Shown: piece by piece, positions 43,160-47,412 of the stretch
Position numbering within the stretch: position 1 is the first letter of the stretch
Layout of the letters: the number at the start of each line of letters is the position of its first letter
Source: Nostoc sp. PCC 7107
Lineage (GTDB): Bacteria; Cyanobacteriota; Cyanobacteriia; Cyanobacteriales; Nostocaceae
Length of the DNA stretch: 64,000 bases
NCBI RefSeq assembly: GCF_000316625.1
Contig: NC_019676.1
Coordinates: 4,854,501 to 4,918,500 of the forward strand
Direction: 5' to 3'
The notes under the pieces: model-generated
Seen by the model: the letters and a program-made list of their open reading frames with translations, nothing else
Database searches by the model: none
Told to the model about the DNA's origin: nothing
Program-made: the position numbers and the translations under genes

Positions 43160-43425
43160 AGGCAGTATTTTTTTACTAGGAATTTTTCATATTTCTCTCA
43201 TTTTCTCAGATAGTTGTCATAAATTGCAACTGTATCGCCAAAAATGTAATTATCTTGTGAATTTTTGAGTTAAGCCAATTCTCTGGCAGTAACAAAATGG
43301 CTAAAGCTATCAGCTTCTTATTCCTCGGCCATATCTTGCTACTTATCAATTCTCCAAAACTAAGCAGTAGAGGCAAATTCGGAAACCCTGATATAGTCTG
43401 ACTTTCCTGATGTTGAATTTTGGAT
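43160..43425. other. Intergenic region between manganese exporter and the four-gene cassette
   Basis: AT-rich with no credible open frame. It marks the left boundary of the cassette that begins at 43543; no inverted repeats or tRNA suggesting an integration site were seen. Confidence 0.4.
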
Positions 43426-43481
43426 TGACAAAACCTGACAAAATTGACATTTTTTCAAAAGAGTTAACTTAAGAATTGACA
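43426..43481 (+). promoter_or_regulatory. Candidate promoter/operator with phased TGACA repeats
   Basis: TGACA occurs at 43426, 43436, 43445 and 43477, roughly 10, 9 and 32 bp apart, close to whole turns of the helix. Two of these are part of TTGACA, matching a -35 hexamer, but -10 elements are weak. The repeats lie 60-115 bp upstream of the first cassette gene and could be bound by the cassette's own XRE-type regulator. This is inference only. Confidence 0.35.
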
Positions 43482-43542
43482 TTGTTAAATAAATGAACTA
43501 GCCTATTCATAGAAGCAAGCTCTGAGCTTTGGAGGTCAGATC

Positions 43543-44172
43543 ATGCCTGACGGAGATAAATTTCACAGTCGCCTTTCATGGCGTTATCAGGAGGCTTACC
43601 GAGACCTCTGTGAAAGAAAGTTTGACAGCAGCGAAATTGTATGGACTGTGAAAAAGGCGCTTTTGCAGGATATCAAGAAAAGCTATGGTGATCAGCCTGT
43701 TAAATACGCCAAGCGATTGGGAGAAATGTTACAAGGGGCTATCAAAAATGCTGGTAATAATAGCTTTGTGGACTGGGCTACTTTAAGTAAGGATATTGAT
43801 CGACAGGTAGGACAAACCGAACTTAAATATTATGAGAAAGGATTACTCCTTCGTGCTGCTAAGGCTGTACTCAATCAGTTTCGTTATAACCGGAGAGTAG
43901 ACACCAGTAATTTCCCAGAAGCTGTTGTGGGGCAGTTTTTCCTAGAAATTTACAAGTCAAATTTTGAGGAACGTATTCCTTTGACCCCCAATCATTATGC
44001 TGATCTTGATCGCATTACTGTTATGGAATGTGTTGAAGCAATCAATCCAGAGATTTCGGTTGAGATCAGCAAATGGGCGAAGAAGGCTACTCTGGATGAA
44101 GATGTAAAAAAGCTGCGGCGTTCTCCACGCCAGAAGGTGAAAGAGATAGACCTTGAGGAGAATCTGCTATGA
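43543..44172 (+). CDS. Cassette gene 1: unrecognised helical protein
   Basis: 209 residues, soluble, predicted mostly helical, with many charged residues. Recognisable features are limited: YQEAYRDLCERKF near the start, a helical middle (LLLRAAKAVLNQFRYNRR) and a basic C-terminal tail (KLRRSPRQKVKEID). I do not recognise a family. A strong GGAGGTC lies 5 nt before the ATG. The stop overlaps the start of the QueC-like gene by ATGA, so translation is probably coupled. It may be the scaffold or protein substrate of the cassette, which is a guess from position. Confidence 0.8.
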   Translation: MPDGDKFHSRLSWRYQEAYRDLCERKFDSSEIVWTVKKALLQDIKKSYGDQPVKYAKRLGEMLQGAIKNAGNNSFVDWATLSKDIDRQVGQTELKYYEKGLLLRAAKAVLNQFRYNRRVDTSNFPEAVVGQFFLEIYKSNFEERIPLTPNHYADLDRITVMECVEAINPEISVEISKWAKKATLDEDVKKLRRSPRQKVKEIDLEENLL

Positions 44173-45596
44173 ACTATGAACCGTCAACTGAGCAGAAACT
44201 TCAAAACAGCGATCGCAGAAACTACACCTTAAAATTCAGCCCTGTGTCAAACAATAACGGATCAGTACGCTTCATCGATCACTCTCAAGGTAAAGAACGA
44301 ACTGTTGGCATTAATGTGGTTGATCAAGTGTTTGAAAATCGGGTTCAGGCAGAGTTTCCAGCGATTATTGCTGATATTATTGACCTCGCCGTAGCAATCC
44401 ACGCATCAGACCGCCTCGCGCCCCAAAATTTGAACGAGAAGGAGCGTCAACTTCATGTCATCCTGCCAGTACGTCATCCAGAATTGCTGAGTGCTGAACC
44501 ATTTCAAACTAAGTTGAAAGAACTACTTGAATGGGCAACTGGAAGCCAATGGGTTTTCGAGTTTCAAAAACGGGAAGTACTTGCACGCTCTGTTGAGCAA
44601 CAATTACTTTTTGGAACAGAATCTAGAGGATATGAAGTGGTACTGTGGAGTGGTGGACTAGATGCTCTTGCAGGTCTGTACACTCGCCTGAAGATGTATC
44701 CAGAAAAGCGATTTGCATTGTTTGGAACTGGCAGCAACTTTAATGTCTATGACCTTCAAAAAAAGATAGCAAAAGAAGCTCAATTTATCTTCCCCAGACG
44801 TTGCGCTCTTTTCCGTCTCCCAATTACTTGGCAGGAAAGTTGCTCACAGCAAGAGAAAAGGAAGAAGAACAAGTTTTCCCGTGCGCGAGGTGTTGTGTTT
44901 ACACTACTTGGTGCTGCGTGCGCCTATCTTATGGGTCAAAGGATTCTCTGTGTTTATGAGAATGGGATGGGGGCGATTAATCTTTTTTACCGCGCATCTG
45001 CTGTAGGACTGGATCACACGCGATCTGTTCACCCACTAACTTTGCTGATGGTAGGTGACGTTATTTCAGAACTTTTAGGAGAAAAATTCCAGGTACAGAA
45101 CCCATTTCTGTTTTGGACTAAAGCTCAAATGTGCAAAGCATTGACTGAAGATGGAAGAAACGACCTAGCATCGCTAACCATGTCATGCGATAGTAAACAC
45201 CGTAAGTCTCAGCAGCCCACACAGTGTGGTTATTGCTCCTCCTGTCTTTTGAGGCGACAAGCCCTTGCCGCAGCTAACATAGAAGATAAGACTCCTTACA
45301 TAGTGCTTCATGAAAAACGCTCAGATAAGGATCGGAGTGAGGCTTTCCTGAATATGCGTGAGCAAGTCCGCATCCTCAATAATCTACTCAGTGTCTCAGG
45401 TGAAATTAGTTATCAGTGGGAAGCTTTGACCAGAAGGTTTTCAGATTTGGAAGATATAGTTGATCGAACTGCTGCTGCTGAAAACCTATTACCCTTGGAT
45501 ATGCGGAGTCGGCTGATTCAGCTTTATCAAAGCTACGTTGCTGAATGGGATACTGTGGAATCCCGAATTTCAAGCGGCTTTTTGAATAATGCTTAG
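44169..45596 (+). CDS. Cassette gene 2: QueC/QatC-like ATP-pyrophosphatase
   Basis: 475 residues, about twice the size of housekeeping QueC. Residues 1-150 are an extra N-terminal domain (IIADIIDLAVAIHASDRLAP ... LHVILPV). The PP-loop is LWSGGLDALAG (residues 159-169), and the C-terminal zinc site is Cys340 then CGYCSSC (Cys353, 356, 359), as in QueC. QueC makes 7-cyano-7-deazaguanine, but this large form with an N-terminal domain resembles QatC and Cap9 proteins of the Qat and type IV CBASS defence systems. Those are linked to deazaguanine-based modification of protein partners. Here it is flanked by a regulator and a PIN protein, which differs from both. Confidence 0.88.
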   Translation: MNYEPSTEQKLQNSDRRNYTLKFSPVSNNNGSVRFIDHSQGKERTVGINVVDQVFENRVQAEFPAIIADIIDLAVAIHASDRLAPQNLNEKERQLHVILPVRHPELLSAEPFQTKLKELLEWATGSQWVFEFQKREVLARSVEQQLLFGTESRGYEVVLWSGGLDALAGLYTRLKMYPEKRFALFGTGSNFNVYDLQKKIAKEAQFIFPRRCALFRLPITWQESCSQQEKRKKNKFSRARGVVFTLLGAACAYLMGQRILCVYENGMGAINLFYRASAVGLDHTRSVHPLTLLMVGDVISELLGEKFQVQNPFLFWTKAQMCKALTEDGRNDLASLTMSCDSKHRKSQQPTQCGYCSSCLLRRQALAAANIEDKTPYIVLHEKRSDKDRSEAFLNMREQVRILNNLLSVSGEISYQWEALTRRFSDLEDIVDRTAAAENLLPLDMRSRLIQLYQSYVAEWDTVESRISSGFLNNA

Positions 45597-45627
45597 TCAC
45601 AGATCAACACGCTTGAGGGAAAATGTT

Positions 45628-46845
45628 ATGACTACCAATATCCTAGACAATATAGACCTGCGGACATTGGGGGAACTCCTGGAACAGGCGCGTAAAAAGT
45701 GCGGCATGACTCAGGCTGATGCAGCGAAGGTCATTGATGTTTCACGTACCACTATGGTTGCCATCGAGAAAGGGGAGCGCCGTATTAAGTCAACTGAACT
45801 GATTCAGCTTGCTCGTGCCTACGGATGTTCTGTGAGTGACTTTGTAAGACCGCGCCCTGTGGTGCAACCTTTTGAAGTACAGTTCCGGGCAGTTTATCAG
45901 CGCAGTGAGAAGGAAGAGGCAGAAATTAAACCATTCATTCTTCACCTAGAGGAGTTGTGTCAGAATTACCTAGAACTAGAGAAGATTATAGATGCAGCAC
46001 TACCGCAGAACTACCCTTTGGAATATGAGGTGAAAAATCTGCCGATCAAGGCTGCTGCGGAAAATATAGCAGTTGCGGAGCGTCAACGCCTTGGACTAGG
46101 GGACGGCCCCATTCCACGTCTTCGGGACATTCTAGAGCAAGATGTGGGACTCCGTATTTTCTATCTGAAGATGCCCACAAAATACTCAGAAGTTTACAGC
46201 TACAACGAAGAACTCGGCGGCTGTATGGCAATTAACGCACTTCACCCAGAAGAGCGACGACGTTGGTCAATGGCTCATGGATACCTTCATTTTTTGGCAC
46301 ATCGGCGAAAACCTGAATTCCACTTTGATGATCAGTATCAACGAGTTCCAGAAAGCGAGCAACTAGCGGAAACTTTCTCAAAATATTTTCTAATGCCTAC
46401 CAGTGGATTGCTTAAACGGTTTAATGATATGTGCCGTACACATAGTGAATTCAAATTCACTCCTACCAATCTTTTTACACTGGCACATTACTATGGTGTT
46501 TCCATAGAAGCACTTGTTCATCGTTTAGAGGAAATGGAACTTCTGCGTTCAGGAACTTGGAATAAATTGCAAGACCGGGGTTTGAAAGTCAGAAAGGTGC
46601 AAAAGGAACTTGGCTTAGAAGAAATCCCACAGCGCCCTGACATGATGCCACTCCACTATCAACGGTTGGCGATTGAGGCACTAGATCAGGGACTGATCAC
46701 TGAAGGGCGTTTTGCGGATTTTTTCAATGTTGACCGCTTAGAAGCCCGCTGTATTGCAGAGAAATTGCGAGAGAAATTCTTGGAGGATTCAAGTGCAATG
46801 TTGCAAGAAACCGTTGATTTCGACCTGTGCCAGATGCAGGAATGA
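45628..46845 (+). CDS. Cassette gene 3: XRE regulator with ImmA/IrrE-like domain lacking the HExxH Glu
   Basis: 405 residues. Residues about 5-60 are an XRE helix-turn-helix (LGELLEQARKKCGMTQADAAKVIDVSRTTMVAIEKGERR). Residues about 140-320 follow the ImmA/IrrE (COG2856) metallopeptidase pattern (LRIFYLKM, RRWSMAHGYLHFLAHR, LAETFSKYFLMP), but the HExxH motif reads HGYLH (residues 217-221), so the catalytic Glu is Gly. GAGGG 9 nt upstream favours the ATG at 45628; an ATG at 45589 overlapping the previous gene is also possible. ImmA-type proteins normally cleave a repressor; this one may sense without cleaving. Confidence 0.85.
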   Translation: MTTNILDNIDLRTLGELLEQARKKCGMTQADAAKVIDVSRTTMVAIEKGERRIKSTELIQLARAYGCSVSDFVRPRPVVQPFEVQFRAVYQRSEKEEAEIKPFILHLEELCQNYLELEKIIDAALPQNYPLEYEVKNLPIKAAAENIAVAERQRLGLGDGPIPRLRDILEQDVGLRIFYLKMPTKYSEVYSYNEELGGCMAINALHPEERRRWSMAHGYLHFLAHRRKPEFHFDDQYQRVPESEQLAETFSKYFLMPTSGLLKRFNDMCRTHSEFKFTPTNLFTLAHYYGVSIEALVHRLEEMELLRSGTWNKLQDRGLKVRKVQKELGLEEIPQRPDMMPLHYQRLAIEALDQGLITEGRFADFFNVDRLEARCIAEKLREKFLEDSSAMLQETVDFDLCQMQE

Positions 46846-46860
46846 TGGAAGTGAGAAAAT

Positions 46861-47412
46861 ATGTATATTGCTCACTCCCATGTTCTTCTTGATGCCTGTT
46901 GCGTTCTAAACTTTTGTGCTTCGGGCAAATTTCTTGACATCTTGAAATCAATTTCTGCTGAAGTTGTAGTCACAACAGTTGTGCAAGAACGTGAGTTAAA
47001 GACGCTCCAACGCCTTAAGGATGAAGAAAATGAGGGTGCGACTCAATTCGAGGCAGCCATTTCACAGGGTCTACTTACAGTTGTGGATTTCGAGTCAGAA
47101 GAGGAAGTGGAATCTTATGTAAACTACGCCGCAATTCTCAGAGATGATGGCGAGTCTGCCACTTGTGCGATCGCAATTCACCGAGGATGGGCAGTAGCAA
47201 CTGACGACAAACGAGCTATCAAGTTTTTTCAGCAATCAGCACCGTACATTCAGGTTTTATCAACCCCGGATGTAATAAAACACTGGTCAGAGGAAGCAGA
47301 TGTTGATTTGTCTTTACTACGTGATGCTCTTAATGCAATTCAGGTCAAAGGCCGCTATTCCCCAGATAGAAATCATCCTCTAAGAAGCTGGTGGGAAGCA
47401 GCATTAAAATAA
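46861..47412 (+). CDS. Cassette gene 4: PIN-like domain protein
   Basis: 183 residues. The N-terminus HVLLDACCVLNFCASGK has the first PIN acidic residue (Asp in LLDA), RDDGESATCAIAIHRG gives the second acidic site and VATDDKRAIKFF the third, as in PIN-family (DUF3368-like) ribonucleases. Gene 4 begins 15 bp after gene 3, with GGAAGTGAG before the ATG. PIN proteins are frequent toxins, usually paired with a small antitoxin; the partner here would have to be the XRE/ImmA-like protein. Catalytic integrity looks intact, but activity is inferred. Confidence 0.82.
   Translation: MYIAHSHVLLDACCVLNFCASGKFLDILKSISAEVVVTTVVQERELKTLQRLKDEENEGATQFEAAISQGLLTVVDFESEEEVESYVNYAAILRDDGESATCAIAIHRGWAVATDDKRAIKFFQQSAPYIQVLSTPDVIKHWSEEADVDLSLLRDALNAIQVKGRYSPDRNHPLRSWWEAALK

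What the first reader, a model, noticed from the sequence alone, without database searches (positions are those of the whole stretch)
43543..47412. Four-gene cassette: unknown protein, QatC-like QueC, XRE/ImmA-like regulator, PIN protein
The genes are tightly packed (4-bp overlap, about 31 bp, 15 bp), co-oriented and set between unrelated housekeeping genes. Seen: a large QueC homologue with an extra 150-residue N-terminal domain, an HTH/ImmA-type protein and a PIN-like nuclease. Known: large QueC homologues occur in the Qat and type IV CBASS defence systems, and ImmA/XRE and PIN proteins are common in mobile or toxin-antitoxin loci. I know no named system with exactly this set (Qat has an ATPase and TatD nuclease; type IV CBASS has a cyclase). 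Inference: a deazaguanine-linked modification system with a PIN effector, possibly anti-phage or stress-controlled.
Basis: partly seen in the sequence, partly recalled or inferred. Interest (0 to 1): 0.88.

Follow-up and report, generated by a model that had tools for sequence, protein, structure and literature searches.

The report
Qat-like gene pair with toxin-antitoxin
Four genes that travel together in cyanobacteria and a few Chloroflexota combine a relative of a known anti-phage protein-modifying enzyme with a likely toxin-antitoxin pair, and two kinds of phage carry only the likely antitoxin, which hints at a self-contained immune switch not yet described.

Summary
In detail: four packed genes, 43543-47412. 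The cassette recurs. A scan of 84,980 species genomes with gene 2 gave 22 loci; 21 hold all four genes in the same order (18 with all four full length), in many cyanobacterial families and a Chloroflexota MAG. Gene 2 falls beside QatC, away from housekeeping QueC. Gene 1 sits where qatB sits; the best PDB matches of its model are QatB, but sequence homology is not significant and MGTS is replaced by M-(x)-D-G-D. Gene 3 (XRE plus ImmA-like) and gene 4 (PIN fold) look like a known toxin-antitoxin kind. A conserved palindromic operator heads the cassette. Genes 3-4 occur without genes 1-2 in 12 of 386 genomes (gene 4 broken in two); genes 1-2 were not seen without gene 3. Gene 3 was intact in 40 of 40 loci, gene 4 broken in four. 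Two different tailed-phage contigs carry gene 3 with no full gene 4. Best reading: a QatBC-type switch joined to a toxin-antitoxin pair, probably anti-phage. Defence-island context was not seen; no function has been tested. New variant of a known kind.

The parts
43445..43449 (+). upstream operator half-site TGACA, 31 bp before the palindrome
   Evidence: TGACA at 31-32 bp in 25 of 27 cassettes (the spacing had no shuffle control)
43476..43488 (+). palindromic operator-like element over the -35 box (TTGACATTGTTAA in the window); predicted -10 at 43499-43504
   Evidence: within 2 mismatches of TTGACAATGTCAG in 19 of 27 cassettes (3 mismatches in the window copy); shuffles give 0.35%
43543..44172 (+). 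gene 1: all-helical protein in the position of QatB; N-terminus MPDGD
44169..45596 (+). gene 2: QatC-like QueC-family enzyme (SGGLDA, TRSVHP, Zn-type CGYCSSCLLRR)
45628..46845 (+). gene 3: XRE HTH plus ImmA/IrrE-like domain (HGYLH in place of HExxH), predicted antitoxin and autorepressor
46861..47412 (+). gene 4: PIN-fold nuclease, predicted toxin
43245..47412 (.). approximate extent of the inserted cassette against empty sites in the same genus

Best explanation
A composite, self-contained immunity cassette of two modules under one autoregulated promoter. Module A (g1-g2) works like QatB-QatC: g2, an ATP-using QueC-fold enzyme, binds the helical g1 and acts on its conserved N-terminal tail (inferred). 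Module B (g3-g4) is a toxin-antitoxin pair of the XRE-ImmA/PIN kind: g3 represses the operon at the GACAWTGTC operator and holds the PIN nuclease g4 in check (inferred from architecture, operator and loss pattern). On infection, module A or the phage's disturbance of g3 frees the PIN nuclease, which cuts RNA and stops growth (inferred). Phages answer by carrying g3 without a full g4 (their carriage is shown, the purpose is inferred). Shown here: the modules, their order, the operator-like element, the separate histories, the asymmetric losses and the phage-borne g3. Not shown: any activity.
Confidence: 0.55

Rival explanations
1. g3-g4 is only an addiction module that stabilises the g1-g2 cargo; g1-g2 works alone (as QatBC alone defends against some phages) and does not signal to the PIN toxin.
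For: g3-g4 occurs without g1-g2 in 12 genomes; the modules have different histories in the window; QatBC alone suffices against lambda (PMC13279940); a COG2856 TA next to the multi-ubiquitin cassette was read as stabilising (PMC4963859 passages).
Against: None of the 9 sampled cassettes has g1-g2 without g3 beside it; one operator-promoter appears to serve all four genes; an addiction module that stabilises g1-g2 should not see g1-g2 deleted beside it so often.
Confidence: 0.25
2. g3 is a CapH-CapP-like stress regulator: damage or infection triggers its protease part, which derepresses the operon; g4 is a direct effector, not a TA toxin.
For: PADLOC capP 9.8e-11 and capH 1.3e-7 on g3; conserved operator-like element at the head of the cassette.
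Against: The catalytic Glu of HExxH is Gly in 30 of 40 loci, the window included, Glu in 9, Asp in L046 and in two more Chloroflexota copies, and the motif is RQYFR in phage L168, so proteolysis can hardly be the general mechanism; no locus was seen with an intact g4 and no g3.
Confidence: 0.12
3. Gene 2 is an ordinary metabolic QueC or another small-molecule enzyme and the cassette is a stress or metabolic operon.
For: QueC Pfam domain.
Against: Canonical QueC is elsewhere in 10 of 10 genomes tested; g2 lies apart from QueC by a 100/100 branch; at this site the cassette was seen in the window's genome only, of 11 same-genus genomes queried, one of which (L143) ends there.
Confidence: 0.03

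Closest known systems
qatABCD (Qat) anti-phage system, core QatB-QatC
   Same: QatC-like enzyme with N- and C-terminal extensions; small helical gene directly upstream; hydroxyl residues in place of the Tyr/Asp nucleobase pair in 26 of 29 copies; conserved N-terminal tail on the partner; structural best hit QatB
   Different: no TatD-like gene near any of 29 cassettes and a QatA-like gene near only one (L159, other strand); g1 starts M-(x)-D-G-D and not MGTS, with a tail of about 10 and not 30-90 residues; SGGLDA in 27 of 29; XRE-ImmA and PIN genes instead
XRE-COG2856 (ImmA) / PIN toxin-antitoxin operons (Makarova 2009, PMC2701414, passages)
   Same: fused XRE plus M78 protein followed by a PIN gene; occurs as a two-gene unit
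   Different: here joined to a QatBC-like pair under one operator; protease motif mostly lost
Type IV CBASS (Cap9)
   Same: QueC-family enzyme; Cap9 modifies a partner's N-terminus (PMC13279940)
   Different: no CD-NTase or Cap10 hit among the four genes; g2 matches QatC
CapH-CapP of CBASS
   Same: XRE repressor and M78 domain (PADLOC matches)
   Different: fused in one protein, catalytic Glu mostly lost, paired with a PIN gene

Membership tests
qatABCD | QatC homologue | tested here: met
   PADLOC QatC 1.8e-40, NCBIfam 155.8 bits (under cut-off 280); on the QatC side of a 100/100 branch from QueC
qatABCD | QatA ATPase and QatD TatD nuclease in the operon | tested here: not met
   tblastn of 4 QatA and 4 TatD-type proteins against 29 cassette loci with flanks: TatD 0 of 29, QatA-like only beside L159, on the other strand; three control qat loci were hit. 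Some loci are short contigs
qatABCD | QatB with MGTS N-terminus | tested here: not met
   M-(x)-D-(G/A)-D in 26 of 26 g1; MGTS in 10 of 10 QatB
qatABCD | QatB fold in the partner | tested here: inconclusive
qatABCD | SGGxDS ATP loop and the QatC hydroxyl pair (T278/T280) | tested here: inconclusive
   SGGLDA in 27 of 29, SGGLDS in L046 and L159; both hydroxyls in 26 of 29, one in L027, L046, L159
qatABCD | anti-phage activity | not testable with these tools
   needs plating
XRE-ImmA/PIN toxin-antitoxin | fused XRE plus M78 protein adjacent to a PIN-fold protein | tested here: met
XRE-ImmA/PIN toxin-antitoxin | pair occurs on its own; antitoxin not lost before toxin | tested here: met
   12 pair-only genomes, g4 intact in 10; g3 intact 40 of 40, g4 broken 4 of 40
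XRE-ImmA/PIN toxin-antitoxin | HExxH protease motif | tested here: not met
   HGYLH in the window; variable across the family
XRE-ImmA/PIN toxin-antitoxin | toxicity and neutralisation | not testable with these tools
   needs expression
canonical QueC | about 222 aa, groups with QueC | tested here: not met
   475 aa, other side of the tree; a canonical QueC lies elsewhere in the genome
Type IV CBASS | CD-NTase and Cap10 | tested here: not met
   no such family hit in the four genes or the next one

The most novel reading that the evidence does not exclude
A QueC-family protein-modification switch is wired to a PIN toxin-antitoxin pair: the enzyme acts on a new kind of N-terminal acceptor or pseudosubstrate (M-x-D-G-D) of its helical partner, and the modified partner tells g3 to release the nuclease. 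Two phage lineages defeat it by carrying a copy of the antitoxin, one of which has lost its protease motif and kept the rest.
Probability: 0.3. Interest if true: 0.88.

Novelty: new variant of a known kind. Interest (0 to 1): 0.75.

Why it matters
What QatC does to QatB and how that stops phage are stated as open questions (PMC13279940). Here a QatBC-like pair has other accessory genes, a toxin-antitoxin pair with a predictable effector, and phages carry the likely antitoxin. That gives a system in which the output (PIN cleavage) could be assayed directly, and it suggests that QatBC-type pairs are modules that plug into different effectors.

Tried and rejected
Housekeeping QueC: rejected. Defence-island association: looked for in 136 flanking ORFs of 100-520 aa within 4 kb of 26 cassettes (25 gave ORFs; the window was not among them). 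Pfam: 135 families, none in more than 4 members (Uma2 4, PIN 3); PADLOC at 1e-15: 102 families, the 25 listed each in 2 members, mostly PD-T4-6. Both lists were capped at 25, so a defence gene beside a single cassette is not excluded; indeed L159 has a QatA-like gene about 1 kb past g4 on the other strand.

Plasmids: g1 and g4 no match, g2 only distant QatC-like places under 60% identity in 87 records. Phage collection (INPHARED): g2 only two distant Listeria phage hits, g3 none at 1e-20. Viral contigs: g1 and g2 none, g4 two contigs, g3 three. Viral structure library for g1: nothing at E up to 0.001.

Sequence homology g1-QatB by profile: not significant. N-terminal glycine modification as in Cap9 and as proposed for QatC: the acceptor residue is not conserved in g1, so I do not claim deazaguanylation. 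QueE supply: TIGR04322 gave matches in 11 of 13 genomes, none over its cut-off, inconclusive.

The 40 loci were chosen by g2 or g4, not at random. The start of g1 was set at the motif in 7 of 26 rows (L014, L020, L021, L029, L033, L034, L042), where the frame is open further upstream. The operator consensus was drawn from the same sequences that were then scored, so the shuffle test is not independent. The module-history test was run after I had seen the identities, on 22 chosen cassettes and two constrained trees. L105 was not used in the QatB alignment because its annotated start looked wrong.
Full report
WHAT IS THERE. Four co-oriented genes lie at 43543-47412 with a 4-bp overlap and gaps of 31 and 15 bp. 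Gene 1 has no match in Pfam, NCBIfam or PADLOC; gene 2 matches QatC far better than QueC; gene 3 is XRE plus an ImmA/IrrE-like domain; gene 4 is a weak PIN match. The AlphaFold2 model of gene 4 (pLDDT 92.9) matches PIN and VapC structures with probability 1.00. The host genome has its own canonical QueC elsewhere, as do all 10 cassette-bearing genomes tested.

IT RECURS. Of 386 sampled genomes of the phylum, 13 have a gene 2 match. Nine, the window's included, carry g1-g2-g3-g4 in order (G022 has a stop in g1 and G306 a broken g4); one (G087) has an in-frame deletion that joins the start of g1 to the end of g2; one (G233) is a decayed remnant; two (G170, G113) have MGTS-type QatB before QatC. 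A scan of the GTDB species genomes with the gene 2 alignment gave 22 loci: 21 hold all four genes in order and 18 hold all four at full length (L027 has a short g4; L044 and L045 have g2 in two frames; L047 is the G087 deletion). Named hosts include Nostoc, Microcoleus, Planktothrix, Oscillatoria, Coleofasciculus, Leptolyngbya, Spirulina, Acaryochloris, Thermosynechococcus and a Chloroflexota MAG. Of 301 Chloroflexota genomes, 4 match gene 1: L046 and L160 have all four genes, L159 has g2-g3-g4 with a g1 broken by stops, and L161 is a g1 fragment at the edge of a short contig. In L160 g4 has lost the first PIN aspartate.

A SELF-CONTAINED INSERT. I queried 11 genomes of the window's own genus for the gene to the right and read the site in the 10 others. 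The cassette was seen at this site only in the window's genome. L145, L146 and L147 are empty there; L142 keeps the last 18 codons of g4; L144 has a VapBC-type pair, L149 an antitoxin-like gene resembling that of L144, L148 genes that read by eye as a TetR regulator and a glycosyltransferase; L141 and L150 match on one side only and show none of the four genes in the 9 kb taken; L143 ends at a contig end and tells nothing. Four genomes of the same family (L151-L154) have the two flanking genes close together without the cassette. The insert is about 43245-47412, with no mobility gene. Elsewhere the neighbours differ: among 136 ORFs beside 25 cassettes no Pfam family is shared by more than 4 (capped lists). 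I saw no defence-island context. One Chloroflexota locus (L159) has a QatA-like gene about 1 kb past g4 on the other strand; none of the other 28 cassette loci has a QatA-like gene and none of 29 a TatD-like one, while three control qat loci were hit.

GENE 2 LIES BESIDE QATC. In a tree of 16 g2, 11 QatC and 2 QueC, g2 is one clade (100/100) on a long branch and QueC is split off by a 100/100 branch; whether g2 is sister to all QatC is not resolved (82/27). Solved QatC chains are the only PDB sequence hits at 0.001. QatC replaces the nucleobase-binding Tyr/Asp of QueC and Cap9 by two threonines (PMC13279940, parts 1-3 of 6 read); by alignment g2 has hydroxyl residues at both places in 26 of 29 copies and at one in L027, L046 and L159. 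g2 has SGGLDA for SGGxDS in 27 of 29; L046 and L159 keep the serine.

ONE PROMOTER, ONE OPERATOR. Upstream of g1 lies TTGACAATGTCAG, a palindrome over the -35 box, 51-56 bp before the start in 26 of 27 cassettes (in L021 the best match fell elsewhere). It is within two mismatches in 19 of 27 against 0.35% in shuffles, and a second TGACA lies 31-32 bp upstream in 25 of 27, the Chloroflexota copy L046 included (also visible in L159). The window copy has three mismatches. This is what an autorepressing XRE protein would bind (inference).

TWO MODULES WITH DIFFERENT FATES. Gene 4 is in 23 of the 386 genomes: 9 cassettes, G087, G233, and 12 with g3-g4 but no g1-g2 (g4 itself broken in two, G042 and G215). 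In several of the 12 a scrap of g1 or g2 remains (L091, L094 with L093, L095, L096, L098), and in L090 and L092 the deletion runs from about 50 bp before g1 to about 10 bp before g3, judged against L015. The pair-only label needs 9 changes (gains or losses) on the g3 tree, at least 7 forced by well supported branches. In the three pairs measured g3 is still under strong constraint (dN/dS 0.05-0.09) and g4 under some (0.19-0.38); g1 evolves fastest (0.35-0.45). In a table of 40 loci g3 is intact in all and g4 broken in 4: the pattern expected if g3 neutralises g4. No g1-g2 was seen without g3. In the window itself g1-g2 sits with Microcoleaceae-type copies (grouping with the Nostoc type: AU p 0.043) while g3-g4 sits with the Nostoc type (grouping with the Microcoleaceae type: AU p 0.0004), as if a new g1-g2 had joined a resident g3-g4. 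This test was chosen after seeing the identities.

GENE 3 AS PROTEASE. HExxH is HGYLH in the window and 30 of 40 loci in all, HEYLH in nine, and HDYGH in L046 and the two other Chloroflexota copies. Proteolysis is therefore unlikely to be the common mechanism.

PHAGES CARRY GENE 3. Two near-identical IMG/VR contigs (L162, from a 75.8-kb contig, and L163) have g3 at 99.2% identity to that of Planktothrix (L019) followed by a g4 cut short by about 40 residues, and no g1-g2 in the stretch read. The 75.8-kb contig has a terminase large subunit (E 1.1e-145) and phage-type nucleotide genes. A 188.6-kb contig (L168) has g3 alone, 69.6% to Microcoleus, no g4 match on the whole contig at 0.01, and terminase small and large subunit genes that begin within 4 kb; its protease motif is gone (RQYFR). 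On the g3 tree the two phage copies lie in different places inside the cassette g3 (100/94 with Planktothrix, 99/96 with Microcoleus), so two captures. I saw no cassette operator just before either phage g3. Phage-carried antitoxins as counter-defence are known (recalled, not looked up); a recruited regulator is the alternative.

MECHANISM. Best reading: a QatBC-type pair (g1-g2) joined to a PIN toxin held by g3, with growth arrest as the output. The parts, order, operator-like element, losses and phage copies are shown; every activity is inferred. The XRE-COG2856 and PIN pairing as a TA kind was predicted in 2009 (PMC2701414, passages).

KNOWN OR NEW. The two papers on QueC-family defence (PMC13279940, parts 1-3 of 6; PMC13329287, parts 1-3 of 5) hold no PIN, XRE or ImmA as words in their main text. 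The second reports qatA beside only about a third of its QatC cluster and does not, in the parts read, say what lies beside the rest. Searches with these words listed no paper on the combination (listings only, some capped). The library lacks most subscription journals and holds no bioRxiv set. It does not meet the definition of qatABCD (no QatD, no QatA in the operon, no MGTS), so I file it as a new variant: Qat-like core, toxin-antitoxin accessory.

Noticed in passing
L162:3789-5456, L163:3789-5456, L168:4995-6164: Tailed-phage contigs carrying the cassette's g3 with a truncated g4 or none: candidate counter-defence antitoxins.
   Followed up: yes
L159:1468-2967: A QatA-like (KAP-type) gene of 499 aa lies about 1 kb past g4 of a Chloroflexota cassette, on the other strand.
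   Followed up: partly
L093:4491-4646 and L094:5247-7128 (G380:C1:5010490-5044128): First 52 codons of g1 and the last 17 codons of g2 plus g3-g4 are about 32 kb apart; the middle of the cassette has been replaced by a long stretch.
   Followed up: partly
L022:8985-9722 (= L047): In-frame deletion joins the start of g1 to the end of g2 as one 245-aa frame.
   Followed up: partly
L144:7111-7807: The same intergenic spot holds a VapBC-type toxin-antitoxin pair in another species of the genus.
   Followed up: partly
L106:2330-6949: Calothrix sp. NIES-4101 plasmid5 has a qatABCD-type operon annotated as queC, TatD-related and hypothetical proteins.
   Followed up: no
OR846725.1 and OR848142.1: Two unannotated Listeria phage records encode a distant QatC-like stretch (24% identity).
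   Followed up: no
L101:1797-4283: An 828-aa protein of a small-genome member of the phylum shows weak similarity to g1 (E 4e-5) in its C-terminal part; may be chance.
   Followed up: no
L160:11505-12152: Chloroflexota g4 copy that has lost the first PIN aspartate while g3 is intact.
   Followed up: no
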